Shown one piece after another: positions 22,190 through 61,974 of a DNA stretch of 64,000 nt. The notes below the pieces were generated by a model. The model made no database searches and was not told where the DNA came from. It saw nothing but the letters and a program-made list of their open reading frames with translations. The stretch is from Paraescarpia echinospica (taxonomy: Eukaryota; Annelida; Polychaeta; Sabellida; Siboglinidae): NCBI GenBank assembly GCA_020002185.1, contig CM034533.1, forward strand, positions 49,152,271-49,216,270, given 5' to 3'. A program made the position numbers and the translations under genes. The number at the start of each line of letters is the position of its first letter. Positions within the stretch are counted from its first letter, which is position 1.

Positions 22190-25100
22190 TCAGTCGTCCT
22201 CCTCCCCCTGGCCCTCTGCCTCCACTGTTGCATTCACAGCCTCTGCCAGGTCTGCCTTGCCCATCTGTAGTCGCTCCCCTGAAACAACAGCATCGACTGA
22301 AACAACAGCATTCACAGGCTCTGCCAGGTCTGCCTTGCCCATCTGTAGTCGCTCCCCTGAAACGACAGCACTGACTGAAACAACAGCATTCACAGCCTCT
22401 GCCAGGTCTGCCTTGCCCATTTGTAGTCGCTCTCCTGGAACAACAACATTGACTGAAACAACAGCATTCACAGCCTCTGCCAGGTCTGTCTTGCCCATCT
22501 GTAGTCGCTCCCCTGAAACGACAGCACTGACTGAAACAACAGCATTCACAGCCTCTGCCAGGTCTGTCTTGCCCATTTGTAGTCGCTCTTAAAGGTAGAG
22601 ACCACCATTCTGTGAGTCAATAACAGGTTACGTGTTTTCTGTCCTGTGTGGGAACTATTTCTTCCCCTGGCATAGATATCAGATAGAAGGATCCTTCAGC
22701 TTTTAGTATATCTAAGGTAAGGTGAACTAAATTTCTGATGTTTCGAAATGATGGCAAGTACGACTGGACTACCGTCCCCTTGACTGACAGTCCGGCATAC
22801 TCGACTAATGTGTGCCATTTTATAACAGACTGAAAACACTGAGATTTATAGATTTACTAATTTTTGACCCACAAGTCACACAGCGTATACGGTATGTAAT
22901 AGCTGGTGATTTGTCTAAAATAGAGACTTTAGTTGAGTTGGTAGTTATGGAAGACACGTCCACAACAGTCCAATGTGGCATATAGATAGAGCCAGTTGAC
23001 TTACGAATGAGTTCTGCGATGGCACGTTGTGTCCGCCGCTCCAGTTTCTCCAGCTTCTTAGCGACGTCTCGCTTCAGATCCCAGTCCGGCTTACGGGGAG
23101 CCAGATTCATCAGGTCCTACAACATGTTACACTAACAACACATCTATAGAAAACACTTTGGGTGCTATACACTGTAAATTTGATGTAATCTTCAAAATGT
23201 GGTTTCAATTCATGACACCACCTTAATTCTCCATTACTACATGCTTCTCCAGACATTTAACCAGACGCAGGATAACTCCAGATATCTATCTTTTATAAAA
23301 CCATCTGCAAGACTGGGCCACTTGAATAGATTTAACAAGATTGCCACCCAGAGAATTAACTCTAGGTGGCAGGTGGACAAGGAAGCCCTTTGGCTTATCG
23401 AGAGTCCGACCCTTTTATCTATGTGTATCCCGCCCGTCTAAGGTATGTGTCGATTTTATTTTTAAACATATTCACGCTACTAGCACCCACACAATCAGCA
23501 GATAATCTGTTCCATTCATTTACAGTCCTTTGTGAAAATAAAAACTTTCTTATATCTAATCTACTCTGCTCCTTTGCTAATGTAACTTCATGTCCTCTAG
23601 TCCTTCTATCTTTCTTAATTGAAAAATATATATTTCTATCAATATTTTCATAATCATTCAATATTTTAAACACTTCTATCTGATCTCCTCTCAATCTCCT
23701 GGTCTCTAGTGTTGTTAAACTGCACTTTTTAGGCGTATTTCGTAACTAAGATCCCTCAGTTTTGGTATCATTTTAGTTGCTCTCCTCTGCACTCTTTCTA
23801 GCGTATCAATGTCCTTTCTGCGATATGGCCTCCACACTTGAATACAATATTCTAAATGAGGCCTAACTATTGTTTTGTACAGCGGTATTATTAGCTCTTT
23901 TTCCTTATACGATGTTTCGCCTAATTAATCCAAGGATTTGATTTCCCTTTGAAGCTGCAATTCCGCACTGCTCTGAAACCTTCATATCAGCACTAATGGT
24001 TAACCCTAAGTCCTTTTCTTTTACAGTAGTACTTAGTACAGTACCCACCATTGTATATTCTACTTCTTCGTTCCCATGTCCTGTGTGGAGGCATTTACAT
24101 TTCCCAAAATTGAACAGCATTTGCCACTTTTCAGACCATTTGATCAACCTGTCAAGATCATCTTGTAAATGCTGTCTATCTCCATCACTTTTAATCCTTC
24201 TAAACACTTTTGTATCATCTGCAAATTTCAACACCTTGCTTGTTATTTCATCATCCAAATCATTGATATATATTAAGAATAATATAGGTCCTAATACTGA
24301 TCCCTGTGGTACCCCACTCAATACCGATTTCCAGTTTGAAGCCTCCCCATCAACTACTACACGTTGTCTTCTGTCAATCAGCCATTGTTCTATCCAGTTT
24401 ATTATACCATTTCCTATGCCATGGGCCTTTAGTTTCAGCAGTAATCTTTGATGTGGTACTTTGTCGAAAGCTTTTTGAAAATCTAAGTAGACGATATCTA
24501 CTGGTGATCCCTCATCTACCCACTTAGTGATTTCTTCCAAAAAACATAACATATTTGTTAAGCATGACCTTGCTTTAAAAAAAACATGTTGAGATGGGTT
24601 GATCAAGTTTTGTTTAACAAGAAAATCCACCATGTGATCTTTAATTAATCTTTCTAATAATTTGCAAATCACTGATGTTAAACTCACTGGTCTATAGTTC
24701 TCTGACTTGTTTCTCGAACCTTTTTTAAATAACGGTATAATGTTTGCCTCTTTCCATTCTGAAGGAACCACTCCCTCTTCTAATGACAAATTGAAAACTG
24801 TTGCAAGCGGTACGCTAATTTGTTCTACAATTTCCAATAGTAGTTTGGGCGGAATCCCATCCACTCCAGGTGATTTATTATCCTTCATAGCCCTTATTTT
24901 CTTAGCTACCATTTCTGGGGTTACAATTAATTGTCCTAAATAGTCTGAATCTGCCCCCTTGAACTTAGCCTCTGGTACTGGCTGTGAACTAATATCCTCT
25001 CTGGTAAACACTGAACTAAAGTACTCATTCAGGTCTTCTGCCATTAAGAATCCCTCTGATATTATATTTCCAGCACTATCTTCTAGAGGACCGACCTTAT

Positions 25101-28100
25101 CTTGAACTTTCTGTTTGCTTCGAACATATGCATAAATACTCTTGCTGTCATGTTTTATATTACTAGCTAATTGTTGTTCGTAGCTTCTCTTTGAATTTCT
25201 AATTTCAGCTGTAGCTTGGTTAAGTGCTTCTTTACAACTGTTGTAGTCTTCATCATTTCCAGTACATCTATATGACTTCTATATCATTTGTTTATACTTA
25301 ATTTTTCTAATGGCTTCTTTCGATGTGTTTCTTTTTGGACTGTGTCCCTTGTTTTTTGAAGGGTACAAATTTGTCGACTATGCACTTAATTTCACTCTTT
25401 AATATATTCCAGCATTCTGTTGCTGTCTTATTTTGCAGTGTGTTATTCCAGTCTATCTTTGCTAAATATTTCCTCATGTCCTTATATCTTCCTTTGTGGA
25501 AATTTCTCCTATACTGCTTTTTATTATTCCTTTCTGATTTTACTTTGATGGTAAAATGTATCTGGTTGTGATCGCTACTCCCCAGTGGCTGACGTATCGT
25601 GACATTGTCAACTAATTCATTCTGTGAGGACAAAACTATGTCTAACACATTCTCACTCCTGGTTGGTTCTAGCACATGTTGAGAAAGGAAAGTATCTTGA
25701 ACTAACACTAAAAACTTGTGGTCGTCACTCCCCATACTCTGAAGAGATTTCCATTGTATATGCCCGTGGTTAAAATCCCCCATAATAATACAGTCCCGTT
25801 TGCTTACTTCCCTTACAGCGTTTTGTATTTTTTCATTCTCTTATATGCTTATGTTTGGACTTCGATAAACTAACCCAACTGTTAACGTTGAGTTACCTGT
25901 AACTATGTTACACCAAACAGCTTCTTCGCAATCTGCTTCTCTTTCTAATTTTATTTCATTAGCCTGGATAGATTCTTTAATATATAAAATAACTCCACCT
26001 CCCTTTCTTCCTATTCTATCTTTTCTAAACATTACATATCCTGTCAGTCCCAATTCGGCATCTGATATATCGGTGATGGTCCAGGATTCAGTTATACCTA
26101 TTATATGAGGGTCAATATCTTCTACCATAATGTTTAGTTCATTTCTTTTGTTTTGTTTGCATTTAAACACACACATTTATATCTAGCTTCAGAAGAGTTT
26201 TCCAGACTGTTATTTGCTGATTTATTTGTGCTGTCTTTATCTATGCCTTCATTTTCAGGCTTTTCTGCCCCCGTTCCACTAAGATGGAGGCCATCTCTCA
26301 TGTACATATCTTCCCTCCCAACAAAGTATCCCCATAAATCTGTGAATCCCACCCCCTCTTCTTCACACATCTGCTGAACTAGTGCGTTGATCGCCATCCT
26401 CTTGCAGTTTCTATACGTTGCCCCCCTTCCTCCCATTACTGGCAAAATTCCTGACAAAATAACCTGTTCAACTCTTGTCTTCTTTAGCTTCCTCACTAAC
26501 TGTCTATACTTCTGTACTATCGCAGTTGTTCCCTCCCTGTCTGCATTATTTGTTCCTACATGTACCAGTATAGACCTCCCCTTGCCATGTCCCAATACGT
26601 TCTCTACCCTGTCAGTGACATGTTCAATTCTAGCCCCCGGTAGACAAACAACGACGTCTTTCCCCTCGCTCAGTGTCTTGTCTGTCTTTCTCATAATGGA
26701 GTTGCCCATAAACACCCTCTCTTTCCTCATTGCCCCCGCAATCACTGCCTTAGAATAGCTCCTTCTTCGGTTTGCATCTGTCTGGTTGTTGTCTTTCCCC
26801 CCCTGTCGTCTTCTCTCCTGTCCCATTCTCTTCCGATCCATTCTTTCCTGTCGCTTTTTCTCTTGTCACCTTTCCTCCTGTCAATGTCCCTTTTATCGAC
26901 TTCTCTTCTATCACATTTGCTCTCACTTCCTTTCGTCCCTTCATCTTTCGTCCCATCTCATTTTCTTCTTTCCTCTCCCATCCCATCTTCTCTCCCTCCT
27001 TCTCTACGGTCACTTTTTTCCCTGTCACCTTCACACTTGTCACGTTTTCTGTTGTCGATTTTCCAATTTCTTCCCCTCCAATCGCCTTCCCTCCTCTCAA
27101 TCTCCTTTCATCAGTTTTGTTGTCACTGCTATTCTCCTTCAGTCTTGCAGTATTCTCACCTTTCTCCCTGTCGTCTCTCTCCATTCGACCTGCCTCCTTG
27201 CTAATTCCCATCTCCATTCCCTTCACAATATCTGTCAACCTAACTATCTCCTTCTGCAGACACTCCACCTTCCAACACCCAATGCACTGAAAGGTGAATC
27301 CTTCCTCCATGACTTCCCACAGCCGGACAATGCAAAATCTACCCAGCTGTGGCAGTGATCACACACCAAGTGTCGCTTTACCTTCACTTGCCGTTTGCAA
27401 GGCGCCATATCCCGATCAGAATTTATTTAATAACTTAACTAACTTAGTCTATATAAAGACTGTTTCCTGTATACTACAGCACACTTTAGGTTACAAATTT
27501 CAGTTACACAGCCGACTATTTATCCTGTCACGAACGCTAACATTACCGGTGGTGACCTAATTTAAATACAATCAATTACGTTACGCCGCCCGACTATCGC
27601 CCTTGCTTAGTTTTAACGACAATGCTACCTAATCAAAATATCTAGCAAGTGCTGGCTTACACAGATATTATCTTAGGTAAGAAGTTTGATGGTTGTTACT
27701 TTATCTCCTATATATTCTACCACATAATCAGGTTTGTTAAATCTTGTTTACAACTTACCGAAGGCTAAGTGAGTTACCCTATTATCACTCAATATACTAA
27801 GGTGTTCTAAAATACTTTAACTAACTAACTTTAAGCACAGCTGCTACTCAATATGTGTTTATTGCAACTTTATGAATGATATTAAGGCAAGAATAATACT
27901 TGTCAATCTGTAATTCCACTTGTTTATCAACTTTTCTGCACCACCAATTTCTACGATCTATCTCCGCCAAATATAGCCTCGAAGTGATGATGGATTCTTT
28001 TAACTGGGTTTGGCTGACTAGTGAGATCAGTTAACTGGGTTTGGCTGACTAGTGAGATCAGTTAACTGGGTTTGGCTGACTAGTGAGATCAGTTAACTGG

Positions 28101-31100
28101 GTTTGGCTGACTAGTGAGATCAGTTAACTGGGTTTGGCTGACTAGTGGTGAGATCAGTTAACTGGGTTTGGCTGACTAGTGAGATAAGTTAACTGGGTTT
28201 GGCTGACTAGTGAGATCAGTTAACTGGGTTTGGCTGACTAGTGAGATCAGTTAACTGGGTTTGGCTGACTAGTGAGATCAGTTAACTGGGTTTGGCTGAC
28301 TAGTGAGATCAGTTAACTGGGTTTGGCTGACTAGTGAGATCAGTTAACTGGGTTTGGCTGACTAGTGAGATCAGTTAACTGGGTTTGGCTGACTAGTGAG
28401 ATCAGTTCACAACTGGATTTGGCCCATCGTTGTCTTAAGGCGACCTTGTCTACTTGCATCACCCAAAATCATCAAGTCAAGAGGGCAATACTTTGGCCCA
28501 CTTGCTGTCTAGATTGGGGGAAACAGACTGAGAGCTCAACTTCAAAGAGCTATTGCAGGTATTTGTTGTCTTTGCAACAGCTGTGTTCACTATTCAGGCA
28601 GTTTTTTAAATACAATTTGAACATATCATTCCGAACAATGTGTCAGGCGTCTTAAACACAATTTAGGGGGCAGTATGCCTTCAACATAGTTTTTTTCATA
28701 TTAAGAACACAATGAAAAAGAAATCTTAGTTTGTTTAAATACACAACAGCATGCCATAAAGATAAAGGAGAGATGGGGAGAGAGAGTGTGAGAGGGAGCG
28801 AGAGACAGGGAGCGAGAGGGGGGAGCAAGAGAGGGGGGAGCGAGAGAGAGAGAGCGAGAGAGAGAGAGAGAGAGATTCATAGGATATCTATAACTAGTGA
28901 GTTTGTTTTTTCACCCACCACTTCGTCAACAAGTGGTAGTGGCTTGCTCGCCTCCAGTTGTTCTATCACATGTTCTTTCACTGAAAACAGGCACACTTAC
29001 ACAGGTCAGTCTAACTATATTCTTAATGGTCCTTCACTGAAAACAGACACACATACACAGGTCAGTCTAACTATATTCTTAATGGTCCTTCACTGAAAAC
29101 AGGCACACTTACACAGGTCAGTCTAACTATATTCTTAATGGTCCTTCACTGAAAACAGACACACATACACAGGTCAGTCTAACTATATTCTTAATGGTCC
29201 TTCACTGAAAACAGGCACACTTACACAGGTCAGTCTAACTCTATTCTTAATGGTCCTACACTGAAAACAGGCACACATACACAGGTCAGTCTAACTATAT
29301 TCTTAATGGTCCTTCACTGAAAACAGGCACACTTACACAGGTTAGTCTAACTCTATCCTTAATGGTCCTACACTGAAAACAGGCACACATACACAGGTCA
29401 GTCTAACTCTATCCTTAATGGTCCTTCACTGAAAACAGACACACATACACAGGTCAGTCTAACTATATTCTTATTGGTCCTTCACTGAAAACAGGCACAC
29501 TTACACAGGTCAGTCTAACTCTATCCTTAATGGTCCTTCACTGAAAACAGACACACATACACAGGTCAGTCTAACTCTATCCATAATGGTCCTTCACTGA
29601 AAACAGACACACATACACAGGTCAGTCTAACTCTATCCTTAATGGTCCTTCACTGAAAACAGACACACATACACAGGTCAGTCTAACTCTATCCTTAATG
29701 GTCCTTCACTGAAAACAGACACACATACACAGGTCAGTCTAACTATATTCTTAATGGTCTTTCACTGAAAACAGACACACTTACACAGGTCAGTCTAACT
29801 ATATTCTTAATGGTCCTTCACTGCAAACAGACACACATACACAGGTCAGTCTAACTATATTCTTAATGGTCCTTCACTGCAAACAGACAAACATACACAG
29901 GTCAGTCTAATTATATCCTTAATGGTCCTACACTGAAAACAGGCACACTTACACAGGTCAGTCTAACTATATTCTTAATGGTCCTTCACTGAAAACAGGC
30001 ACACTTACACATGTCAGTCTAATTCTATCCTTAATGGTCCTACACTGAAAACAGGCACACTTACACAGGTCAGTCTAACTATATTCTTAATGGTCCTTCA
30101 CTGAAAACAGGCACACTTACACAGGTCAGTCTAACTCTATCCTTAATGGTCCTTCACTGAAAACAGACACACATACACAGGTCAGTCTAACTCTATCCTT
30201 AATGGTCCTTCACTGAAAACAGACACACATACACAGGTCAGTCTAACTCTATCCTTAATGGTCCTGCACTGAAAACAGACACACATACACAGGTCAGTCT
30301 AACTCTATCCTTAATGGTCCTTCACTGAAAACAGACACACATACACAGGTCAGTCTAACTCTATCCTTAATGGTCCTTCACTGAAAACAGACACACATAC
30401 ACAGGTCAGTCTAACTATATTCTTAATGGTCCTTCACTGAAAACAGACACACTTACACAGGTCAGTCTAACTATATTCTTAATGGTCCTTCACTGAAAAC
30501 AGACACACATACACAGGTCAGTCTAACTATATTCTTAATGGTCCTTCACTGCAAACAGACACCCATACACAGGTCAGTCTAACTATATTCTTAATGGTCC
30601 TTCACTGAAAACAGACACACTTACACAGGTCAGTCTAACTATATTCTTAATGGTCCTTCACTGAAAACAGACACACATACACAGGTCAGTCTAACTATAT
30701 TCTTAATGGTCCTTCACTGCAAACAGACACCCATACACAGGTCAGTCTAACTATATTCTTAATGGTCCTTCACTGAAAACAGACACACTTACACAGGTCA
30801 GTCTAACTATATTCTTAATGGTCCTTCACTGAAAACAGGCACACTTACACAGGTCAGTCTAACTCTATCTTTAATGGTTCTTCACTGAAAACAGACACAC
30901 ATACACAGGTCAGTCTAACCCTATCCTTAATGGTCCTTCACTGAAAACAGACACATATACACAGGTCAGTCTAACTCTATCCTTAATGGTCCTTCACTGA
31001 AAACAGACACACATACACAGGTCAGTCTAACTCTATCCTTAATGGTCCTTCACTGAAAACAGACACACATACACAGGTCAGTCTAACTATATTCTTATTG

Positions 31101-34100
31101 GTCCTTCACTGAAAACAGGCACACTTACACAGGTCAGTCTAACTCTATCCTTAATGGTCCTTCACTGAAAACAGACACACATACACAGGTCAGTCTAACT
31201 CTATCCATAATGGTCCTTCACTGAAAACAGACACACATACACAGGTCAGTCTAACTCTATCCATAATGGTCCTTCACTGAAAACAGACACACATACACAG
31301 GTCAGTCTAACTCTATCCTTAATGGTCCTTCACTGAAAACAGACACACATACACAGGTCAGTCTAACTATATCCTTAATGGTCCTTCACTGAAAACAGAC
31401 ACACATACACAGGTCAGTCTAACTATATTCTTAATGGTCTTTCACTGAAAACAGACACACTTACACAGGTCAGTCTAACTATATTCTTAATGGTCCTTCA
31501 CTGAAAACAGACACACATACACAGGTCAGTCTAACTCTATCCTTAATGGTCCTTCACTGAAAACAGACACACATACACAGGTCAGTCTAACTATATTCTT
31601 AATGGTCCTTCACTGAAAACAGGCACACTTACACAGGTCAGTCTAACTATATTCTTAATGGTCCTTCACTGAAAACAGACACACATACACAGGTCAGTCT
31701 AACTATATTCTTAATGGTCCTTCACTGAAAACAGGCACACTTACACAGGTCAGTCTAACTATATTCTTAATGGTCCTTCACTGAAAACAGACACACATAC
31801 ACAGGTCAGTCTAACTATATTCTTAATGGTCCTTCACTGAAAACAGGCACACTTACACAGGTCAGTCTAACTCTATCCTTAATGGTCCTTCACTGAAAAC
31901 AGACACACATACACGGGTGAGTCTAACTCTATCCTTAATGGTCCTTCACTGAAAACAGACACACATACACAGGTTAGTCTAACTCTATCCTTACTGGTCC
32001 TTCACTGAAAACAGGCACACTTACACAGGTCAGTCTAATTCTATCCTTAATGGTCCTACACTGAAAACAGGCACACATACACAGGTCAGTCTAACTATAT
32101 TCTTAATAGTCCTTCACTGCAAACAGACACACATACACAGGTCAGTCTAACTATATTCTTAATGGTCCTTCACTGCAAACAGACACACATACTCAAGTCA
32201 GTCTAACTATATTCTTAATGGTCCTTCACTGCAAACAGACACACATACACAGGTCAGTCTAACTATATTCTTAATGGTCCTTCACTGCAAACAGACACAC
32301 ATATTCAAGTCAGTCTAACTATATTCTTAATGGTCCTTCACTGAAAACAGACACACTTACACAGGTCAGTCTAACTATATTCTTAATGGTCCTTCACTGC
32401 AAACAGACACACTTACACAGGTCAGTCTAACTCTATCCTTAATGGTCCTTCACTGCAAACAGACACACATACACAGGTCAGTCTAACTCTATTCTTAATG
32501 GTCCGTTGCTCTAATGACGACGCTTGCTTGTCCCTGTTAACGATTTTGCCCAATGATTCTTGAATGTTGTGCCTCTGAGCTCAGATTTGTGGGGATTTAG
32601 GCATCATAGATGTTTGTCATCATTATTACTAAAACTTGCTGTTATACTTTACTAATGGATAGTTAACAGAATGTTTAGAACAGATAACCAAATTAACTTC
32701 TAAAGCCAAAAGGTATTTGTGTGGTTGCAAGGTATAACATCTACAAATATGTAACTTTGTGGGTGCGTGCTTGTGTACGTGCGTGACTCCCAGTTACATG
32801 TACATGAAATAGTTTAAACATGTTTTTAAAATGGGTTCACCTTCTGCAGGGCCGATGGCTGGCAACTGGTTCTCTTTAAGAGTCTCATCTGTTGGCTTGT
32901 AGCTTCGGAAGGTGGGTCTGCGGTTCAAACAAACACTTGTATGTTAACGACACACAGATAAAACAATATATTGGAATCAAATCATCATCAGTAATGATGA
33001 ATCGCATTTTTTATTTTGCCACTATAATCTAAGAGCTAAGTATTACATATTTTAATAAATATGTGTAAAAGTATTTTACCAACTTCAAATAAGAGGCATG
33101 ACGTTCAACACAAAATTATATGTTATGTACAATCAAAAACATGTTAAAAAAGATAATCATATAATATAGAGATATGTTTCAAGTGTTGCATGTGATTTGT
33201 AATAAAACATAAATAATTATTGTATTTTTGGTCTGACTTGTGAATGTATTCATAGTTAAGAGTTGGTTTGATTGTTTTTGAACAAATTGAAATAATTTTG
33301 GTCTTATTTGATGACTTAGGACCTCACAAAGATGGCACTTCTTACTTCTACCATGAATGTCTCTAATCTAGGACTAACCATTTTTCAAATGATTGTGTGT
33401 GATTAATATTATAATATTATTTATATGTCTTGCCCATGTGTGTATAAAGGTTTTGGTGACCGTTTTCCACAATAATGTGAACCTAAGAACAGTCAACAGG
33501 ATTATGGGTTCAGGAATATTAATGGCAAGTGTCATACACGTTTTGATCTTTGTCAAATGAATGTGTTGAAAAATCTTTTACTGCACTGACTAACTCCAGT
33601 ATACTGACTTTGCCCTATATATATGTCTGCTTGATCAATAATTTGATGCTCTGTTTTAGGTCCGTTTGGTTGATGGACAACATTTTGTCATTCAAGGCAT
33701 TCTTAAGTATTCATGGAATCACTGGTCAGTGTGTCAGGAGATTGTGCAATTTGGTGAGAGATGGAGTGCTGTCACCTAAAGACAAACGAAGTCATGATGA
33801 CAGCCACGCCACTGTTGATGTCATGTTGCTGGAAAAAATTGACACTCAAATCAGACGTTACCCGTATGATGCCGTATCGTGTTGCACATTATGGTAAATC
33901 AGGCACAAAAAACGCTACCTGCCATGCAATCTATCCGTTCATATGATGTGGAAGTCATACCTTGAAAAAATGAACCAGGTGCCTATTTGGCAGTAAAACA
34001 AAAAACCTAGCTGTAAAACCTATCAGTAAGTATGAGTTTTTTCTGAAGCACTATTGAAGCCAGTTCAATTACACATTTGGCAGATGGTTAATGTTTGCTC

Positions 34101-37100
34101 ACTGTGCAAAACGTTAACTTTGCAGATATCGGCAGAGGGTGATGTGGCATCAGTGGCTGGTACCGCTTCTTAAGCTACACAAAATAAAAGCTGACCAGTT
34201 CTACCTGTGCATGAAGCAATGTGAAGAAAGGGTAAACAAATACTGAAGAGGGTCATTGAGAAATGATTACAAGTACTTTTTACTTCATGCAAAACATACC
34301 GTTCCCACATATTCCTATTTCTGAAATGTTTACACCAGACAACATATTCGAACTCGGCATAGCCAGGCCGTTTCCGTAGCGTAGATTTAGGGTCAGGCCA
34401 CGGTCTATGTGAATTATTCAAGAACACAGCCACCTTTTTTCTGCCAAAATAGTTTCTAGAATATTTGTGCATATAAAGAACTTTGTAACTGGTGAATACT
34501 TTACAATAATGAATAAGTGTCATACACATGCTTTTATTTATGTGTGTCAATTCAGTTCAGTTGTGCAAGAACAAGGACTGCTTCAGAGTAATTGCATGAC
34601 AATTCAGCATTGATGTTTCATATTCTCCAGCTATGCTTGTTTTAAGCAAGTAGATATTTACATTCTATCATTATTATTAAAATTAATGTATAAGCTAAAT
34701 ATAAGCTAGGAGAAGTTTGGTGTATGTTGGGTTAGTTTTAGACTTTTCAATAGTATTAGTAGGTTTTGACCGGTTTTAAGTGGTCAAAACAGGTTTTGAC
34801 AGGCTAGTGGTAAAAACAGGTTTTGACTGGCTAGAGTGCAACCCTGCTTGTAATACTATTTTGGTTACTAATACTTACTATCCATGTTTCTTCTGGATAT
34901 AGGTTGGGAAATAAAAACCATATCACCATACATCATGCCATATTGATAATCTATCGACCCTTATAACAACGGCTCATCTGTTCAACCCATCCTCGCAAGC
35001 CAGGGCAGTTTGCCATGCAAAACTAACCCTGGCAGATCCCCTATGCGAAGTGCGGAAGTTAGCTGAGTCAAACTAGTAATTGACTTCGCCAGTCGCGACT
35101 GTATCACCCGTGAGAACAGCGCAAATACCCACCCCAATTTGAAGACGGATAAACGACTTCTGGGAATCCCAATATATAATGACCCGTTCGCCCATTAGCA
35201 CGAGCAGCTGAGTGGTATTCTGTATGGTTGAAATTAGTTTTATTATGATCACCTGACCTGCCGACATCTACTGATCTAGTGAGCGATTTCATAGGCTGAG
35301 CTTAAATTCAGAGTTTTGCAAAGCGATCAGCCAGAGGGTACTGCTGGCTGGCACTGACATAATCAGCAGTAGCGACCCCTGGCGTGCGAGGATGGTTCAA
35401 CCGCTTCGGCCAACAGATGGTGATGATGATGGTGAAAGGAACTGATGTACAAAGTAACCTGTTTTCCCAGGTTTGAACAGAATGACTTATAATAGAGAAA
35501 TACTAGGGCATAGTTGTAAATTAAGTAGGTATGTCAATGGGAGGTCGGACCAAAGTCCATTAAGATTTTGCCGACTTCCAACTTGTTTCCACGTAACAAA
35601 ACATTGGTCATAATTTTGTTTCTTTTGAATAAAATTACACTAACTAACTAACTAGTATTGTTTAGGATTATTGATTTCGCTGCAACTTGAAACGGTTATT
35701 ACATAAGCGTGCCTTGAAGCTGCTACTCGTCGGGCGATTTGCATCCGATCGTTTTGACGTGGCCCGGCTTTGCATTTAGGGGCACTCACTTCAACGAAAG
35801 ATGAGCATGTGAGGTCGATATCTGACATATTAATGTGATACATTGAATTAAAGGTAAAATAATAAACTGTTTATAACTAGAACAACATTGTAGGGAGTTT
35901 AGTATAAGGTTGTGAAAAATACAACATGTTTCTTTCCTATACTTGTGAAAATGTAAGTTTGATGTCGTTTTGCCAAGATAATCTTTCACATTTCTACTTT
36001 TAAAAGATATAAAGAAAAGCACTATTGTTGGTCCAGCTCATGTGCCCCTAGAGCTCAGGAGACACCCACACTCCAATTTTGAACATTCAGATGTTTCTGT
36101 GAGCGGCTTCGGCAATATCCTTCGGCTACTGTTGTCAGTATTACATGACGATCAGCAGAGGGCAGCACCATATGATGGGTTTTTCGTCATCATTTCCCAA
36201 AAAAATTGTACATGAGACTAACATCCCACACACTTTTGTTACATACAAGTTAAAGCTAATTTAATACATTTATTACATCCTGAATTGCATTGCTAGCAAT
36301 TTCTTGTAACATTATGAAATAACATAATAAATGTGTCCTGACATGGTCTGTTTTAGCAGAATCATTTATAGAGGTATAGTCTATAATATGGACAGTAGAC
36401 CTGTGCTACAATTTCTCATCTTTAAATCATAATACATATTACTTAGTATTCTTGCCAGAGAGACTCTTAATTTTAAATATTATTATTCAGCTTAGAACAA
36501 TAGCATAATATATTAATGAAGGAAGTTTTTCGTATATCAAGAAGGAGATGTCAAAGGCAGTGAGAGAAAATGTCCCTCTCAGGAAACGAAAACGCAAGAT
36601 GGCTAACAAACTTCCATGGTGGAGTAAACAAATGCTGAGAACAGTGAAGAGAAAGTATGACTTACGTAAATGCTACAAAAGTTCGGGGCTGGACAGAGAC
36701 TATACTGCATATGTCAAACAGAGAAATGAGACAAACGCCAAAATTAGACTGGCACAGAAAGACTACGAGGAGAAACTAATCAACAATTTATAAAAAAACC
36801 AAAGAAATTCTACGGTTACCTGAGATCAAAACAGAAGGTAAAGGTAACAGTAAGCCAGTTGGAGAAAGAAGACGGCAGAATAACAGAAAATGACCAGGAA
36901 AAAGCAAATGTACTGGGTGACTTTTTCAAGTCAGTGTTTGTAAATGAGGATAAGTCTACCATCCCAGAATTTCACCAAAGAACAAACGAGTGTGTAGCTG
37001 ACATCATATTTACAGAAGAGACTGTACGCAAGAAACTACAAAGTATCCATCCCAACAAGGCGCCAGGCCCAGACGGGTTGCACCCGTGGGTACTGAAAGA

Positions 37101-40100: not shown

Positions 40101-41136
40101 TTGGAAAAATTCATGAAATTTTGAACTTTGCAAAACTGTAGTTTTCTTAATGTTGTACTTAGCTACATGAAATGAATAGCATTGTACTTCTTATAGTGAC
40201 CACTATGTGGGAAAATAAAAAAAAAAAATTGTCCTTGTGATTTATATGCAAAATCAAATCTAACGGAAAATTGTTGGAAAAAAACATGAAATTAGAAATT
40301 TTACAAAACTGCAGTTTCTTTAATATTTCATTGATGTACATGAAACAAGCACCATTGCACTTCTATTAGTGACTATTATCAGGGGAAAATAATGAAAAAA
40401 AATTCTTGTGATTTATAAGCAAAATTAGATCTGTCAGAAAACCGTCAGAAAATGTCATGAAATTCGAAACTTTACCAAGCTGTAGTTGTTTTAATATTTC
40501 ACTTAGATACATGAAACAACTACCGTTGTACTTCTTATAGTGACTACTATCAGGGAAAAATGAGAAAACATTTTTTTTTACGAAACAACATTTTGGTCCG
40601 ACCACCCTACCACAACATGTGGTAGATGCCAAGACCGTCACACAGTTTAAGGCCAGACTCGACAAGCACTGGAATAGCCTGGGATATGGGCACCAACAAA
40701 GGCCAATGGCTTAAATCAGCCCATTAACCTGTAGGCTGTAACTGTAAGTGTATAATTATATAAAAACACAACGTCAACGCCCTGGACCACTCCAGTCTCC
40801 AGTGGCTAGATTATCGAGGCTACGACTACGAGCGTCCAAGACTAAGATTTCAGCTCAGACTGATAGAGCCAGAGATCTAGAGTTCACATGTTTATCTCCT
40901 TCCAAAAATGGAATGTCTACCACGGTGTTGATTCGCTAGTTTGGCTGCCCACAACATTTCAGTGAGTAGTTGTAGTACTGAAATATATATATTATCGCTC
41001 ACTTGGGCAACGCGCTTCCACCATCAGATTTCTTTTTTGAAGGCGGCCCATCATCTTTCAATTTCCCGCCGCTCATAGCCTTTAGCCTCTCTTTTCTCTT
41101 TAACGCTGCATCCTGCATTGTTCCCACAGCTGCCAT
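22190..41136 (-). CDS. CCDC12: CCDC12, spliceosome-associated coiled-coil protein (5 coding exons)
   Basis: Coding exons, minus strand: 41136-41003, 32917-32841, 28980-28919, 23116-23005 and a last exon ending at stop 22192-22190. All junctions are GT-AG and phases agree (2, 1, 0, 1). The minimal product is 157 aa; the human protein, from memory, is about 166. Exon 1 starts MAAVGTMQDAALKRKERLKA; exon 2 has FRSYKPTDETLKENQLP; exon 3 VKEHVIEQLEASKPLPLV; exon 4 the near-invariant NLAPRKPDWDLKRDVAKKLE and RRTQRAIAELI. CCDC12 is a small nuclear protein found in activated spliceosomes, hence conserved across animals. The last exon begins inside a 78-bp coding repeat with several in-frame acceptors (22278, 22356, 22434, 22512), so isoforms of 157, 183, 209 or 235 aa are possible. 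Two introns are loaded with transposons and minisatellites. It is head-to-head with the TMBIM gene. Confidence 0.94.
22200..22600 (-). repeat. 78-bp coding minisatellite over the CCDC12 last-exon 3' splice site
   Basis: About five tandem 78-bp units. Read on the minus strand each holds a pyrimidine stretch and acceptor (GTCGTTTCAG), then GGGAGCGACTACAGATGGGC, the start of the last exon (IRERLQMGK with the preceding exon's ATT C). Because 78 is divisible by three and the units are open in frame, each extra unit adds 26 residues (ERLQMGKADLAEAVNAVVSV...). Acceptors are intact at 22278, 22356 and 22512, altered but usable at 22434 (CCAG/GAG), and lost or weakened in the outermost unit (TTTAAGAG, about 22590). 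Confidence 0.93.
23419..26176 (-). pseudogene. LINE ORF2, copy B: endonuclease and reverse transcriptase
   Basis: Endonuclease in two frames (26176-25841 and 25783-25307) with ITESWTITDISDAELG, GLVYRSPNIS, MGDFNHGHIQW and GSSDHNQIHFTIK. A 379-codon frame (25044-23905) then covers almost the whole RT: SPGVDGIPPKLLLEIVEQ, NYRPVSLTSVICKLLERL, DIVYLDFQKAFDKVPHQR, GVPQGSVLGPILFLIYINDL and KFADDTKVFRR (catalytic ADD). The C-terminal frame ends NEWNRLSADCVGASSVNMF at 23419. Frames break near 25840-25780, 25300-25045 and 23905-23700. Confidence 0.93.
26134..27408 (-). pseudogene. LINE ORF1: zinc-finger and SGNH-esterase protein
   Basis: ATG at 27408 opens a Cys-rich N-terminus (VCDHCHSWVDFALSGCG). 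A one-base shift then leads into EEGFTFQCIGCWKVECLQKE, together a C-x2-C ... C-x2-C finger like the PHD-type fingers of CR1 ORF1 proteins. A long charged linker rich in Lys, Glu and Gly follows (27200-26800), with another shift near 26800. The last third is an SGNH hydrolase-like domain: FMGNSIMRK (block I with Asn for the usual Asp), ILVHVGTNNAD (block III) and DGLHLSGTGA (catalytic Asp-x-x-His). Esterase-type ORF1 is known from CR1/L2 elements. The frame runs into ORF2 with a short overlap. Confidence 0.88.
27601..28004. other. CCDC12 intron 3 sequence, nothing recognised
   Basis: AT-rich intronic sequence between the LINE and the 31-bp minisatellite. No frame, repeat or motif worth naming was seen. 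Confidence 0.5.
28005..28410. repeat. 31-bp minisatellite, ~13 copies, in CCDC12 intron 3
   Basis: Units of AACTGGGTTTGGCTGACTAG plus TGAGATCAGTT repeat with almost no divergence. One unit has an extra GTG and one a C-to-A change. It lies about 500 bp downstream of the exon 3 donor and, unlike the arrays at splice acceptors, shows no clear relation to an exon edge. Confidence 0.95.
28755..28875. repeat. Purine-rich (GA)n tract
   Basis: A run of GAGA/GGGA sequence ending about 40 bases from the donor of CCDC12 exon 3. The Arg/Glu/Gly-rich open frame over it is a composition artefact. Confidence 0.9.
28975..32504 (-). repeat. 56-bp minisatellite, ~63 copies, over the CCDC12 exon 3 acceptor
   Basis: The minus-strand unit includes CCTGTTTTCAGTGAAGGACC, which copies the exon 3 boundary CCTGTTTTCAG/TGAAAGAAC at 28980. 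The real exon is the last unit of the array. Two unit types alternate (AGGCACACTT with CTATATTC; AGACACACAT with CTCTATCC). Most units keep the pyrimidine tract and AG. Splicing to an upstream unit would read TG AAG GAC CAT TAA after the phase-1 join, a stop within four codons. Confidence 0.96.
32505..33680. other. CCDC12 introns around exon 2
   Basis: Apart from exon 2 (32917-32841) this stretch is AT-rich intron without recognised features. Confidence 0.5.
33680..34120 (+). pseudogene. Decayed transposase-like gene fragment
   Basis: One frame (to 33897) reads SFKAFLSIHGITGQCVRRLC, VRDGVLSPKDKRSHDD and IDTQIRRYPYD. Shifted frames continue RYLPCNLSVHMMWKSYLEK and PISKYEFFLKHY, then, after a stop, SQFNYTFGRW. 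The order of motifs (FLSxHGIT...RxRRL, PxDxRG-like, then KRYLxxxLS and FxxxxFNxxFGR) is one I associate with widespread transposon-encoded proteins of invertebrates and fish, although I cannot name the superfamily. Breaks near 33890, 33960 and 34050 make it a relic. It lies in CCDC12 intron 1, antisense to the gene. Confidence 0.45.
34988..35394. mobile_element. MITE-like non-autonomous DNA transposon, 407 bp, perfect 8-bp target duplication
   Basis: Left end CATCCTCGCAAGCCAGGG and right end, reverse-complemented, CATCCTCGCACGCCAGGG are 18-bp inverted termini with one mismatch. Both are flanked by GTTCAACC (34980-34987 and 35395-35402), an exact 8-bp duplication. There is no coding capacity. 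An 8-bp duplication is compatible with hAT or P superfamilies; the termini differ from the CAGGGTTC hAT elements elsewhere in this window. Confidence 0.9.
35403..36540. other. CCDC12 intron 1 sequence, little recognised
   Basis: No gene is seen. CAGCAGAGGGCAGCACC near 36153 resembles a CTCF-type core but is a single motif match. The rest is AT-rich. Confidence 0.4.
36541..38470 (+). mobile_element. CR1-like LINE (copy D), 5'-truncated, second LINE family
   Basis: A plus-strand ORF2 remnant distinct from copies A and B. It lacks the endonuclease and starts just before the RT (LRKRKRKMANKLPWWSKQM). Its readable RT ends near SVRTVDQWNRLPQ at about 38435, after which homology is lost. A fragment resembling the missing 3' end lies at 40605-40700. 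It is in CCDC12 intron 1, antisense to the gene. Confidence 0.9.
36548..38440 (+). pseudogene. LINE ORF2 (copy D), RT with destroyed catalytic box
   Basis: Frames in order: FFKSVFVNEDKSTIPEF and PNKAPGPDGLHPWVLKEC (to 37152); SLDTGLIPTDWKQALVTPIF; then a 141-codon frame (37299-37724) with NDNQHGFLEGKSCLTNLL, NVIYLDYKKAFDTVPHCR and GVPHGSVIGPLLFILYVNDI. The catalytic box that should read ADD is FANDT followed by a stop (about 37720), so the active Asp is Asn and the frame ends. The C-terminal frames give LLQFNPEKCKLMKVGK, VRPHLKFFVQAG and LEKVQRRATKLVTSVAKL. At least five breaks are visible. Confidence 0.9.
38471..39590. other. AT-rich CCDC12 intron 1 sequence
   Basis: No recognised feature. 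Strongly AT-rich from about 39180. Confidence 0.5.
39595..39830. repeat. Two tandem ~118-bp units
   Basis: AACCACAGTATATTACAAGT and GCCACAGTGTATTACGAGT mark the two unit starts. Both continue TTAATTGG(T/C)TTG and end TTGCCCAAT followed by ACAAGTG. The divergence suggests an older duplication. Confidence 0.75.
40035..40560. repeat. Three tandem ~175-bp units
   Basis: Each unit contains TTCTTGTGA(A/T)TTAT, AATCAGATC(T)GTCAGAAAA-like sequence, ATGAAATT, an ACTGTAGTT-like motif, TACATGAAA and CTTCT(T)ATAGTGAC. The third unit ends about 45 bases before a LINE tail. It could be a transposon-associated satellite. Confidence 0.75.
40605..40735 (+). mobile_element. LINE 3' end fragment
   Basis: The frame TLPQHVVDAKTVTQFKARLD continues KHWNSLGYGHQQRPMA and then stops, the usual C-terminus of a CR1-type ORF2, followed by a short 3' UTR (TGTAGGCTGTAACTGTAAGTG). 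It could be the missing 3' tail of copy D, displaced by ~2.1 kb, or a separate copy of the same family. Confidence 0.65.
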
Positions 41137-41366
41137 CGTTAATATTTAGAGACGCCTTGTTCACTTCCTCGCAAGGCAACCGAGCTGCAACACGGCGCGT
41201 TGATTGCTGGGAAGGGAGTTGCGCGAACGTTCGCTTGTCAACAAGAAGGATTGACGGCGGTGACCACCTTGCAACATCGAACGGAGTGTACTTGTTCATA
41301 GTAACATTGTTGTCACTGACACGGGTTGTTTCAGCTCGTATAAACGTAGAAATTTGCAGAGGAAAG
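41137..41366. promoter_or_regulatory. Putative bidirectional promoter and 5' UTRs of CCDC12 (left) and TMBIM (right)
   Basis: Only about 230 bp separate the CCDC12 start codon (41136, minus) from the splice donor of the first TMBIM exon (GGAAAG/GTACGT, exon end 41366). The stretch is richer in CpG than its surroundings. It holds an ETS-type CACTTCC (41162), a GCAAGGCAACCGAG resembling an X-box half, TTGCTGGGAAGG and GCGCGAACGTTCGC. There is no TATA box. Exact start sites cannot be read from sequence. Confidence 0.6.
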
Positions 41367-42496
<1,130 letters not shown>

Positions 42497-42533
42497 CAAG
42501 TTTCTGTACCCTCAACCCCACACTGTTGCAGTC

Positions 42534-55281
<12,748 letters not shown>

Positions 55282-55530
55282 GTCACAGGACAACATTGCG
55301 CGTGACACAGACCTTGCGAGTCTCACGGGGACAACATTGTGTGTGACACAGACCTTGCAAGTCTTCCCATACAGCGGGTGGTACATCAACTGCTTTTTGG
55401 TAATTTTTTAAACATCTTCAAAATGTCCAGCTTTCTAGCAGAAATCTCTTGCTTATGTCATGTTTCATTTCGTGATTTAAGTTTCTGACAATCAACTATT
55501 TGGGGCTTGAATAAATTTATTTACGTGGAG
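55282..55530 (+). other. TMBIM: TMBIM 3' UTR
   Basis: Runs from the stop at 55279-55281 to shortly after AATAAA at 55510-55515. A second AATAAA at about 56325 would give a longer UTR overlapping small tandem repeats. Confidence 0.6.
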
Positions 55531-55799
55531 GAATTATTGTATGATGTAAGTCATGTAATTTGTAAATAGTCATGTTTTAATGGGCAAGCCAAGACATTTG
55601 CTACATGGCGACACCAGTGGAGAAAACCTTGAAGGAATCTCCTGCCTTCCTTGAATCCCACGTGGGAGAGACTCAGACCTCAGTGTTTGTATCTGACGAC
55701 TTGAAGGTCTGTAACACACTGCTGTAGCCCTCTCTGCTGGGCAGTTAGTTAACTACGTATAGCCATTTATCTCTCACCAATTACCATTCTACTTTATAC

Positions 55800-56155
55800 A
55801 GTAAGAATGTATGGATTATGGAGTAAGAATGTATGGACTATGGAGTAAGAATGTATGGACTGTGGAGTAAGAATGTATCAACTAAGAATGTATGGCCTGT
55901 GGAGTAAGAATGTATGGACTGTGGAGTAAGAATGTATGGACTGTGGAGTAAGAATATATGGACTATGGAGTAAGAATGTATGGACTGTGGAGTAAGAATG
56001 TATGGACTATGGTGTACCGCTACATTACACTTGTGTATTACGTTTCCTGGTGTACCGCTACATTACACCTGTGTATTACATTTCCTGGTGTACCGCTACA
56101 TTACACCTGTGTATTACGTTTCCTGGTGTACCGCTACAATACACGTGTGTGCCAT
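55800..56155. repeat. Two adjacent short minisatellites
   Basis: From 55800 to about 56010, ~22-bp units (GTAAGAATGTATGGACTGTG plus GA) repeat about nine times. From about 56012 to 56150, ~41-bp units (GGTGTACCGCTACATTACAC plus CTGTGTATTACGTTTCCT) repeat four times. They lie between the convergent ends of TMBIM and MED27. Confidence 0.9.
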
Positions 56156-56787
56156 TGAGTGTGCTATCAGACAGGTGTTGGTTTACCTAACTGTGCAAAT
56201 TACAGAATGTGTAGAGTGTATGATGAAATGGGGGTATGTCAGAACACATACAGCTGGTTGATTATAAGCACATGTTGTAGTTAGACACTTTAATTAAACA
56301 CTGTGTACATTTTGTTCATGTTACAATAAATAACTGTCACACAGCAAAACATGTTTTATCAATACTTCCCATTTCCTTATGCCCTCCTCCAATTCTGTTC
56401 ATGATTTCCACAACTGAACAAATAAAAGTTCTGTTCTTGTCACTTCACCTCTATATATATACTTGTTCACTCAAACACCAACACAACTTTTCTGGAAAGT
56501 ATTCAGCCATGGTGTATGTAATTATTGCTCAAAATATGTACATTCACATAAGTCAACAAGTATTTGTTATTTATGCGGTTGAGTAGGCAATATGGAGTAA
56601 AAAAACTTTGTCTAAACTTCAAAATGACATTAAAAGGATGTGTACAATGGTCTGTACACTGAGAGTTCTGAGCACAACACAACAATTTCACTTGAAACTA
56701 GGTTAGTGAATCATCAGTTCTACTCGAGACCTGCGTCAGTCACTCCAATGACAACACGAACAGACACGACAGTCTACATGTGATGTC

Positions 56788-57659
56788 TCACGGCCGACAA
56801 CTCTCATGGTAGGCGTCAAGTGTGCGGAAGTCTCGCCAAGTGGGTGGCAAGTTGTCCAGTAGGTGGCTTCCACACTTGTGACATGGCTGCGAGAAGAGAG
56901 TCACATAGCTGTGTAGCCATGTCTGGAAGCAACAAACATACAACTCTGCACAACTCATGTACAATATATGTACAACTCATGTTCAACTGATGTACTGCAC
57001 ATCTTCAAGATACAGACACTCATGATAAAATCACATAGTCTCACATACACTGTATCCATTCTCCTAACGTGTATTAATGAAATAAATGTTTAAAACCCAC
57101 TAACTTATCTGTTTAATGTGAAAATTTCAGAACATCATGTTTACATTTCATATACAGGAGCATAATTTTACAGCTGCATCTGAAAACGAACACCTGCTCC
57201 GAGTCCCGACCCATTCTATCAATATGTATTGGTTTACTGGGAACTGTCAACAGCTGTGCACAAAACAGCCAGGAGTTTAGGAGGATATTAATCAACAGAT
57301 TTACACACATTTCACTGATCAGGTTTTACACTAAAATAACATGACCTTTGGCATGTAACTGATTACATAACTAGGGTAGTTACTCATGACAGTGCCTGGA
57401 ATTGTTTGAAAGCGTCGACATTAAAACGGATTTGGGAAGCAAAAATGTAATTTCTCTTGCTCACTGCCGAGATATCAGTGATGTTTTTATTAGTGTGGTA
57501 TAATTATATAAACCATGATTTGATTGGTTTCTTCACGCTTTGATGTTTCGAATGAGCCTGAAACGTGGTGTTTCTCACCATGAAGGATTGTAGTGCGAGC
57601 TGGCCAGCCACATGAGGCATATGGAAGTGGAGCATCGCCGCATTCGCATGGTCTGTCAC
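56788..57659 (-). CDS. MED27: MED27, Mediator complex subunit 27, last two coding exons
   Basis: Penultimate exon 57659-57579 (27 codons, phase 0 both ends) reads VTDHANAAMLHFHMPHVAGQ and then LALQSFM. The last exon, 56922-56788, starts TWLHSYVTLFSQPCHKCGSH, continues LLDNLPPTWRDFRTLDAY and ends HESCRP at the stop 56790-56788. This is the C-terminal region of MED27; the LPPTWRDFRTL run and the Cys-x2-Cys/His-Cys set are near-invariant in the family. MED27 joins the head and tail modules of Mediator, the nuclear co-activator that bridges enhancers and RNA polymerase II. Splice sites are GCTTCCAG/ACATGG and TTGACAG/GTGACAG, donor ATG/GTGAGA. Upstream exons (about 240 residues) were not found within the window and probably lie beyond 64000. 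The gene converges on TMBIM. Confidence 0.93.
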
Positions 57660-58352
57660 CTGTCAACATACATAGTGACAACATGACGCATTCACATGGT
57701 CTGTCACCTGTCAACATACATAGTGACAACATGACACATTCACATGGTCTGTCACCTGTCAACATACATAGTGAGAACATGACACATTCACATAGTCTGT
57801 CACCTGTCAACATACATAGTGAGAACATGACGCATTCACATGGTCTGTCACCTGTCAACATACATAGTGACAACATAACGCATTCACATGGTCTGTCACC
57901 TGTCAACATACATAGTGAGAACATGACGCATTCACATGGTCTGTCACCTGTCAACATACATGGTGAGAACATGACACATTCACATGGTCTGTCACCTGTC
58001 AACATACATAGTGAGAACGTGACTCATTCACATGGTCTGTCACCTGTCAACATACATAGTGAGAACATTACGCATTCACATGGTCTGTCACCTGTCAACA
58101 TACATAGTGATAACATGACGCATTCACATGTTCTGTCACCTGTCAACATACATAGTGACAACATGACGCATTCACATGATTTGTCACCTGTCAACAAACA
58201 TAGTGACAACATGACACATTCACATGGTCTGTCAACATACATAGTGAGAATATGACGCATTCACATGGTCTGTCACCTGTCAACATACATAGTGACAACA
58301 TGACGCATTCACATGGTCTGTCACCTGTCAACATACATAGTGACAACATGAC
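57660..58352 (-). repeat. 48-bp minisatellite, ~14 copies, over the acceptor of the MED27 penultimate exon
   Basis: On the minus strand each unit carries TATGTTGACAG/GTGACAGAC and CATGTGAATGCG, a copy of the true boundary at 57660/57659 and the exon's first 20 bases. AG is kept in nearly all units. One unit near 58230 is shortened. An upstream acceptor would read V-T-D-H-V-N-A-S-C-C and stop at TGA before reaching the true exon. Because 48 is divisible by three, long frames of 16-residue repeats are open on both strands, but not in the MED27 frame. Confidence 0.95.
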
Positions 58353-61049: not shown

Positions 61050-61974
61050 CTCTCACGTGGAAATACGGATGCAGAACTGTATGCAGCTGACTTCTGTCAT
61101 CAGGCCACCCTTGGAGTATGACCTTGGAGAGTTGCTGCGATACTTCATCTTGTTCTGTGGCGTTCCGTATCTGTTGTAGTCGTTCGGGGCGGATTGGAAG
61201 GAAGGACACCATGTTCACTTGTTCCAATTCTGCTTGGCTACAGCCGTCGTTTGGCAGATACGCACGGGAGAGCATGTCAGCAATGTGCATTTCTTTTCCT
61301 TTGCAGTAGATGACCTCGATGTCATATTGTTGAACTCTCAGTAGCATTCCCTGCAGACGTCTGTGTGCCTTGGCAAGAGGTTTTTTCACAATGGCCTCCA
61401 GAGGCTTGTGATCGCTGTGGACAGTTGTGTGTCTGCCAAAGGTGTATTGGTGGAACTTCTGCAGTGAAAAGACGATTGCCAGCATCTCCTTCTCAATTTG
61501 CGCGTAGCGAGTCTCGACGTCCGTAAGCGCGCGACTTGCGAACGCAACAGGTTTCCCATGCTGTAGAAGAGCTGCGCCAAGTCCTTTTTCACTGGCGTCG
61601 CACTGTATCACCAGTTCTGACTCAGGATCGTAGAAGCTGAGTAGTGGCGCTTCTGTTACCAGCCTCTTGACTTCTGCGAACGCCTGGTCTTGAATGCGAG
61701 ACCAATTCCACTGCACGTCTTTGCGTGTGAGTTGCCGAATGGGTTCCATAGCAGCGGAGAGCCGTGGCAGGAATTTGGCTAAGTAGTTCACTGTGCCATT
61801 CAGACGATGAACTTCTTCCACTGAGGACGGAGTCTGGAGTTTTGTGATCGCTTCCACCTTCTTGGGGTCGGGTCGGAGACCAACGTCTGACATCAGATGT
61901 CCGAGGAACGAGATTTCGGTTTTCTTGACCTCTGCCTTCTCTCTGTTGAGCGTTATTCCCCTCTCTCTCTGCAT
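60988..61974 (-). pseudogene. pol: Gypsy RT thumb and RNase H
   Basis: Starts within the RT after a frameshift in a GA-rich run. GITLNREKAEVKKTEISFLG and HLMSDVGLRPDPKKVEAI (RT thumb) are followed by LNGTVNYLAKFLPRLSAAME. RNase H shows IQCDASEKGLGAALLQHGKP (first Asp), RYAQIEKEMLAIVFSLQKF (Glu) and VHSDHKPLEAIVKKPL (SDH), then KEMHIADMLSRAYLP with the closing Asp. All RNase H catalytic residues are present. The usual RFLG motif before NYL reads RLNG. Confidence 0.92.

What the first reader, a model, noticed from the sequence alone, without database searches (positions are those of the whole stretch)
22200..58352. Five minisatellites in three neighbouring genes are each seeded by the 3' splice site of the exon they abut
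Seen directly: in CCDC12 exon 3, the CCDC12 last exon, TMBIM coding exons 9 and 10 and the MED27 penultimate exon, a tandem array ends exactly at the functional acceptor and its unit contains that acceptor plus 12-50 bases of the exon. Unit lengths (56, 78, 41, 37, 48 bp) and sequences are unrelated, so this is not one mobile repeat. The mechanism repeatedly starts at the intron-exon boundary. No array was seen at a donor. It suggests a boundary-linked process such as R-loop or branchpoint-region slippage, replication stalling at spliced junctions, or reinsertion of branched intron products. I recall minisatellites spanning intron-exon borders being reported in amphioxus (called mirages); I cannot verify that here. 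The density of five in about 36 kb appears remarkable.
Basis: partly seen in the sequence, partly recalled or inferred. Interest (0 to 1): 0.93.

Follow-up and report, generated by a model that had tools for sequence, protein, structure and literature searches.

The report
Introns grown from copied splice acceptors
In three neighbouring genes, likely of an animal, five introns end in a stutter of DNA whose repeated word spans the predicted crossing from intron to exon, in one case with 62 extra copies; the copy touching the exon is likely the one still used, so the cluster would let one test how splicing passes over dozens of equally strong decoys.

Summary
Five minisatellites (56, 78, 41, 37 and 48 bp units) in CCDC12, TMBIM4 and MED27 each run out of an intron across its predicted 3' splice site and stop 11-48 bases inside the exon. 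They hit 5 of 15 mapped acceptors and 0 of 14 mapped donors. Random placement of the 14 arrays in the interval gives 0.31 on average and never 5 in 20,000 trials. The units are unrelated. In three introns the array is 88-93% of the intron. In CCDC12 intron 2 all 62 full decoys keep CAG. In TMBIM4 intron 8 none of the 54 scored decoys has AG.

The kind is known: repeats across splice boundaries were named "mirages" in amphioxus, where donors are hit too. New here are density, size and the acceptor-only pattern. By my reading of translated fragments, four of the five introns have counterparts elsewhere, so these arrays likely grew in old introns. A relative's short contig joins CCDC12 exons exactly at two of the acceptors. 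A relative's genomic MED27 exon lacks the repeat next to it. Why acceptors are favoured is unexplained: short direct repeats are not enriched there. Species and genome-wide rate stay open; the genome search did not complete.

The parts
28970..32504 (-). A1: 56-bp array, about 63 copies, 91% of CCDC12 intron 2; ends about 11 bases inside exon 3
   Evidence: 63 matches to the acceptor-spanning core, all with CAG (62 decoys and the real one); the truncated outermost copy does not reach the acceptor
28919..28980 (-). CCDC12 exon 3 (VKEHVIEQLEASKPLPLVDEV), acceptor at its first base 28980
22230..22588 (-). A2: 78-bp array, 4.6 copies, 43% of CCDC12 intron 4; unit carries 48 exon bases; reading frame stays open through the copies
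22190..22278 (-). CCDC12 last coding exon (ERLQMGKADLAEAVN..), acceptor at 22278
52349..54638 (+). A3: 41-bp array, about 56 copies, 92.5% of TMBIM4 intron 8; decoys have lost AG
   Evidence: TRF end 54619; homology carried by hand to exon base 16
54623..54670 (+). TMBIM4 exon 9, acceptor at 54623
54726..55152 (+). A4: 37-bp array, 11.5 copies, 88% of TMBIM4 intron 9; 18 exon bases in the unit
55129..55281 (+). TMBIM4 exon 10, acceptor at 55129
57639..58352 (-). A5: 48-bp array, 15 copies, upstream of the MED27 penultimate exon; 21 exon bases in the unit
57579..57659 (-). MED27 penultimate exon (VTDHANAAMLHF..), acceptor at 57659

Best explanation
Five tandem arrays in this window repeat the DNA that crosses a predicted 3' splice site (polypyrimidine tract, acceptor and 11-48 exon bases); they are likely mirage-type arrays in which the copy touching the exon remains the working acceptor and the other copies are likely passed over as intron. 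Inferred steps: (1) a local DNA-level duplication copied a segment from 19-44 bases upstream to 11-48 bases downstream of the acceptor; (2) unequal exchange and block duplication then enlarged the array inside an intron that was already old; (3) the array survives because its last copy and the rest of the exon are intact; (4) decoys are probably ignored because only the last acceptor is followed by a full exon with a real donor or gene end (exon definition), while units of 37-78 bp leave no room for an exon plus an intron. In A3 the decoys are also disarmed by loss of AG. What favours acceptors over other intron sites is not known; a mutational bias at the 3' splice site is the likeliest reading.
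For: Arrays span 5 of 15 acceptors and 0 of 14 donors; 0.31 expected, 0 of 20,000 placements reach 5; whole window 0.25 expected, 0 of 20,000. A first test on bare TRF ends and a draft exon map counted 4, with P 0.0002, or 0.0005 when placements that would destroy an exon were barred.

Units match the exon start at fixed phase and are unrelated to each other.

Real acceptors. P0125 is a 137-aa reading, 91% identical to the last 87 residues of CCDC12, whose longest contig is 1,031 nt. It runs from within exon 1 to exon 5. It joins ..GPAE|VKERV and ..ELIR|ERLQMGK exactly, with no added 26-aa repeats. Introns of the size seen here would not fit in that contig.

Introns likely older than arrays. 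Intron-like sequence ending in Q stands directly before the residue at the A4 exon start in 15 of 120 listed TMBIM fragments (181 hits in all). Vertebrate-like CCDC12 fragments change from unlike sequence to ..LV(E)(E/D)KVK at the A1 site in 8 of 120 listed (791 hits in all). A donor-like reading at the A2 intron is seen in 1 of 120 (P0237). A break before VTDHA is seen in 2 of 4 MED27 hits, P0122 and P0124. P0124, 93% identical over 39% of the 71-residue query, shows 14 residues upstream of VTDHA that do not resemble the 48-bp unit.

Expansion. Copies are 89-96% alike at lag 1. A1 is most alike at lag 29 units (0.957) and the 43-bp intron-6 array at lag 11 (0.936), marks of block duplication; A3, A5 and the intron-1 array show no such peak in this ungapped test.

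Strength does not separate real from decoy: 61 of 61 A1, 2 of 2 A2, 7 of 10 A4 and 11 of 13 A5 decoys score at or above the real site on a matrix built from the 10 other acceptors here; 0 of 54 in A3. Using any of the first four decoys would bring an early stop in A1, A4 and A5.
Against: No RNA from this species was available, so use of the last copy is inferred from a relative and from protein alignment; P0125's species may lack the arrays. A2 stays open in frame through its decoys, so its real acceptor could be any copy. The A1 and A3 exon matches are modest and are missed by the blind test. Intron age is my reading of translated fragments, not of gene models: 78 of 120 TMBIM fragments read as coding across the A4 site, so that intron is absent there, 2 of 4 MED27 hits read as coding, and A3 was not tested. 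Acceptor against donor alone is 5 to 0, about 0.037 if equal, and published mirages include donors. Simple slippage does not predict the bias. The CCDC12 tree does not place the organism with chordates, so amphioxus is likely but unproved.
Confidence: 0.75

Rival explanations
1. Ordinary minisatellites arise anywhere in introns; those that happen to cross an acceptor are tolerated because the last copy is intact, and the reader noticed a lucky cluster.
For: Other large arrays lie in introns away from mapped splice sites: 28000-28407, 43678-47208, 50552-51417. The interval was picked after the fact.
Against: 0.31 expected against 5 found, 0 of 20,000 placements; barring exon-destroying placements still leaves about 0.3 expected.
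Confidence: 0.12
2. The arrays created the introns: exonic repeats with AG/GT sites were turned into introns, as proposed for amphioxus globins.
For: The model is in print for mirages. Most decoys outside A3 carry AG, and the A1 array holds 22 GTAAGT and 37 GTATGT motifs.
Against: Introns at the same place are read in other sequences for A1, A4 and A5, and a donor for A2. Half or more of the unit is non-coding in four of the five. A3 was not tested.
Confidence: 0.05
3. A mobile element or reinserted intron lariat placed the repeats.
For: The window is rich in retroelements, and introner-like insertion is known elsewhere (recalled).
Against: Unrelated units; the A1 and A4 cores occur nowhere else in the window at up to 3 mismatches; the units hold intron and exon in one piece, which a lariat would not carry.
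Confidence: 0.02
4. The arrays are kept by selection because decoy acceptors regulate splicing or protein length, for example 26-aa repeats added to the C terminus of CCDC12, itself a spliceosome protein.
For: A2 is open in frame through its copies.
Against: The first four decoys of A1, A4 and A5 lead to stops and A3 decoys have no AG. AG columns are no more constant than many others in A1. The relative's CCDC12 has no added repeats.
Confidence: 0.08

Closest known systems
Amphioxus 'mirages' (Adh3, globins BflGb6 and BflGb9, troponin C, PGBD5)
   Same: Tandem repeats across an intron-exon boundary; varied unit lengths; splice signals kept in many copies; reported not to disturb splicing; concerted evolution of copies (passages of PMC3087553, and PMC3902484; the founding Adh paper was not held).
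   Different: Here there are five in 36 kb over three genes, up to about 63 copies and 3.5 kb, all at acceptors. The copy numbers in the passages I saw are lower (6 and 3 in BflGb6; 2 or 7 and 3 or 6 in PGBD5, by assembly), and donors are included there. Species unproved here.
Exon copies in introns of amphioxus VCBP3
   Same: Complete or partial exons, some with canonical splice sites, lie in introns and are like the adjacent exons (passage of PMC2632668).
   Different: The passage does not describe minisatellites.
Intron creation by internal tandem duplication (Rogers model; Gao and Lynch), seen only as cited in PMC3087553
   Same: Tandem duplication carrying splice signals.
   Different: Here four of five introns are read in other sequences; the duplication seems to enlarge an intron, not to make one.
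Introner elements (recalled)
   Same: Unusual source of intron sequence.
   Different: No shared sequence between the five loci; each array is a copy of its own boundary.

Membership tests
Amphioxus mirages | Tandem repeats whose unit spans an intron-exon boundary | tested here: met
   for A3 the AG is lost in decoys
Amphioxus mirages | Unit length in the reported range (10-72 bp Adh3; 150-160 bp globins) | tested here: met
   37, 41, 48 and 56 bp lie in the Adh3 range; 78 bp lies between the two ranges, though PGBD5 has 60 and 108
Amphioxus mirages | Copies homogenised within an array | tested here: met
   89-96% alike at lag 1; a block-duplication peak in A1, none in A3 or A5, A2 and A4 not tested for it
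Amphioxus mirages | Normal mRNA made despite decoys | tested here: inconclusive
   A relative's P0125 joins at the A1 and A2 acceptors; none from this species
Amphioxus mirages | Copy number differs between haplotypes or somatically | not testable with these tools
   one sequence only
Amphioxus mirages | Host is a cephalochordate | tested here: inconclusive
   CCDC12 tree of 17 rows pairs the window with an unnamed 91% relative and, weakly (83/85), with molluscs
Intron gain by tandem duplication | The intron is new in the lineage | tested here: not met
   my reading of fragments for A1, A4, A5 and a donor for A2; A3 not tested
Introner or other mobile element | Same sequence at several loci | tested here: not met
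   within the window only

The most novel reading that the evidence does not exclude
A distinct mutational process, tied to the 3' splice site and not to sequence, keeps copying the acceptor region of old introns, so that introns in this genome grow from their 3' ends and much of their length is tandem copies of their own boundary.
Probability: 0.3. Interest if true: 0.88.

Novelty: new member of a known kind. Interest (0 to 1): 0.62.

Why it matters
If the acceptor bias holds genome-wide, intron length in this lineage would be largely set by a boundary-linked duplication process, a new answer to how introns grow. Whether or not it holds, CCDC12 intron 2 is a natural test of 3' splice-site choice: 62 decoys in tandem upstream of a 62-nt exon, 61 of 61 scored at least as strong as the real site, in a gene that itself encodes a spliceosome component.

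Tried and rejected
Lariat reinsertion: rejected, units hold intron and exon in one piece. One mobile repeat: rejected within the window. Intron gain: disfavoured for four of five. Short direct repeats as seeds at acceptors: fewer than at random sites (with a draft map gave 0.50, 1.36 and 1.62). Selection for AG in decoys: AG columns have 0 changes in 62 A1 copies, but so do many other columns; no claim. Microhomology at the first duplication (array edges): by eye A1, A2 and A4 could share 4-7 bases and A3 and A5 show none; not scored. Hidden decayed mirages at other boundaries: best of the rest are the CCDC12 exon 2 and MED27 last-exon acceptors (20 of 300 each) and the CCDC12 exon 1 donor (19 of 300) (draft map); no claim. 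Species by CCDC12 tree: inconclusive, Acanthaster long-branched. Rfam: 0 matches at gathering threshold. Paper searches listed two mirage papers and, in the rows shown, no genome-wide survey; lists were capped and the library holds open-licence papers only. I saw passages only of PMC3087553, PMC3902484, PMC2632668 and PMC2206037; a term search of PMC3152781 found nothing. The matrix was trained on 10 acceptors and overfits those; mirage and other acceptors should not be compared on it.

Rows dropped: of 38 TRF rows the placement tests use merged arrays of period 20 or more, nested rows and short-period rows left out (14 in the interval; 19 in the window). One search used bare TRF ends (A3 missed) and a draft exon map; one search uses the final map. 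One search used interior copies with exact spacing only (62, 3, 51, 8, 11 for A1 to A5). One search left out the outermost copy of each array. In one search, of 120 fragments a script called 78 coding, 23 intron-like and 19 unclassified; 15 of the 23 end in Q with no likeness to the coding form, by my reading; five unclassified ones also end in Q and were not counted. In some searches the 8 CCDC12 fragments are P0131, P0135, P0136, P0141, P0148, P0183, P0185 and P0200, by my reading.

Full report
The window holds three genes that could be mapped by reading frame and homology. CCDC12 lies on the minus strand: E1 41136-41003, E2 32917-32841, E3 28980-28919, E4 23116-23005, E5 22278-22190. TMBIM4, a Bax1-I domain protein that I call TMBIM4 from recall, lies on the plus strand in ten coding exons from 42534 to 55281. 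The last two exons of MED27 lie on the minus strand (57659-57579, 56922-56791). The joined CCDC12 and TMBIM4 coding sequences have no internal stop. This gives 15 acceptors, all AG, and 14 donors, all GT.

Walking each array back from the true acceptor and building the interior consensus shows that the last copy is the real boundary. Intron part against the real boundary: 42/44, 27/30, 23/25, 17/19 and 26/27 for A1 to A5. Exon part: 9/12, 48/48, 11/16, 18/18 and 20/21. Shuffles of the exon bases reach the match in 100, 0, 109, 0 and 0 of 100,000. The arrays make up 91% (CCDC12 intron 2), 43% (CCDC12 intron 4), 92.5% (TMBIM4 intron 8) and 88% (TMBIM4 intron 9) of their introns.

Chance. With the final map, 5 of 14 merged arrays cross an acceptor and none crosses a donor. 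Random placement in 22190-58352 gives 0.31 and 0.30 on average, and no placement of 20,000 reaches five. For the 12 arrays of score 200 or more it gives 0.28 and 0.26, again with none of 20,000 reaching five. Over the whole window, 19 arrays give 0.25 at acceptors and none of 20,000 reaches five. A3 counts only because I carried its end to exon base 16. The interval was set by the finding, so these figures flatter it somewhat. A blind alignment of the first 40 exon bases to 400 upstream intron bases finds A2, A4 and A5 (0 of 300 shuffles each), misses A1 (272) and A3 (296), and flags no donor (lowest 19 of 300).

State of the decoys. A1: 62 of 62 full decoys keep CAG (63 matches including the real site), and 61 of 61 scored reach or exceed the real site's matrix score. 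A4: 8 of 10 keep AG. A5: 12 of 13. A2: 2 of 2 interior copies. A3: 0 of 54. The A3 sites read GTG (53), CCA, CCG and GCG (one each). Using any of the first four decoys brings an early stop in A1, A4 and A5, and adds 26 codons per copy in A2. The A1 array also holds 22 GTAAGT and 37 GTATGT motifs, so most units look like a tiny pseudo-exon, but too little space is left for an intron (inference).

Are the exon-adjacent sites the ones used? No RNA of this species was at hand. P0125 is a 137-aa reading, 91% identical to the 87-residue query, whose longest public contig is 1,031 nt. It runs from within exon 1 through exon 5 and joins at exactly the A1 and A2 acceptors, without repeat peptides. The introns here total far more than 1,031 nt, so if the relative's introns are of like size this is a spliced message. 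Joined MED27 exons align to a PDB MED27 chain with one single-residue gap inside the penultimate exon, and the CCDC12 exon 4-5 join to a PDB CCDC12 chain without a gap; that these chains are human is recalled.

Which came first, intron or array? In other sequences, intron-like sequence stands directly before the A4 exon start (15 of 120 listed fragments; 78 others read as coding across it). The A1 exon start is preceded by unlike sequence in 8 of 120 listed. The A5 exon start shows a break in P0122 (named Staurois parvus) and P0124, 2 of 4; the other two read as coding. P0237 reads a donor at the A2 intron (1 of 120). These are my readings of translated fragments, not gene models. P0124, from a 313-kb contig and 93% identical over 39% of the 71-residue query, shows MLVLYVSRAVCVHQ before VTDHANAAMLHF, not the 48-bp unit, so the array seems absent next to the exon in that relative. 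The A3 intron was not tested. Thus at least four arrays likely grew in introns that were already there.

Growth. Copies are 89-96% alike at lag 1. A1 peaks again at 29 units (0.957) and the 43-bp intron-6 array at 11 units (0.936). The 31-bp array is identical at 9-10 units, over a short overlap. A3, A5 and the intron-1 array show no such peak in this ungapped comparison. Block duplication by unequal exchange or a like process is inferred. The five units, and three intron-only units, show no kinship (28 pairs, lowest 6 of 200 shuffles).

Why acceptors? Six-base direct repeats spanning the boundary are rarer at acceptors without arrays (0.50 per site, n=10) than at donors (1.18, n=11) or random sites (1.54), so a ready supply of slippage seeds does not explain the bias. 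Five to nothing against donors is 0.037 under equal chance. Published mirages occur at both boundaries. The cause stays open; a mutational bias at the 3' splice site is my best guess, unproved.

Known or new. Tandem repeats across splice boundaries were reported in amphioxus Adh3, globin, troponin C and PGBD5 genes and called mirages (passages of PMC3087553; PMC3902484; the founding paper was not held). The window meets three defining features. Normal mRNA and the host stay inconclusive, and copy-number change could not be tested. So this is a new, unusually dense and large set of a known kind. Searches of the library showed no genome-wide survey of mirages in the rows listed; closed papers are not in it.

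Limits.

Noticed in passing
window 49462-49510: A GTCT tetranucleotide array starts at the fifth intron base after the donor of TMBIM4 exon 4 (exon ends 49457); it carries no exon bases.
   Followed up: partly
window 56939-56995: An 11-bp array (TACAACTCATG) ends at intron position -17 of the MED27 last-exon acceptor (exon starts 56922); exon start and intron show weak likeness (20 of 300 shuffles).
   Followed up: partly
window 43678-47208: A 3.5-kb array of 32- and 45-bp units fills much of TMBIM4 intron 1, away from any mapped splice site.
   Followed up: no
window 50552-51417: A 43-bp array in TMBIM4 intron 6 whose unit contains an acceptor-like CTCTCCTTGCTGCTGTGCCCCAG but no known exon; higher-order repeat at 11 units.
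   Followed up: partly
window 22190-22588: CCDC12, itself a spliceosome protein, has a last coding exon that stays open in frame through the upstream 78-bp copies, so decoy use would add 26-aa repeats.
   Followed up: partly
window 41003-42612: The CCDC12 and TMBIM4 start codons lie head to head about 1.4 kb apart, perhaps with a shared promoter region, with a CA repeat between them (41930-42079).
   Followed up: no
window 8308-15980, 23905-26865, 59838-63935: Several retroelement frames: reverse transcriptase, RNase H, integrase, endonuclease and a GDSL-esterase frame beside a non-LTR element; one set lies upstream of the mapped MED27 exons.
   Followed up: partly
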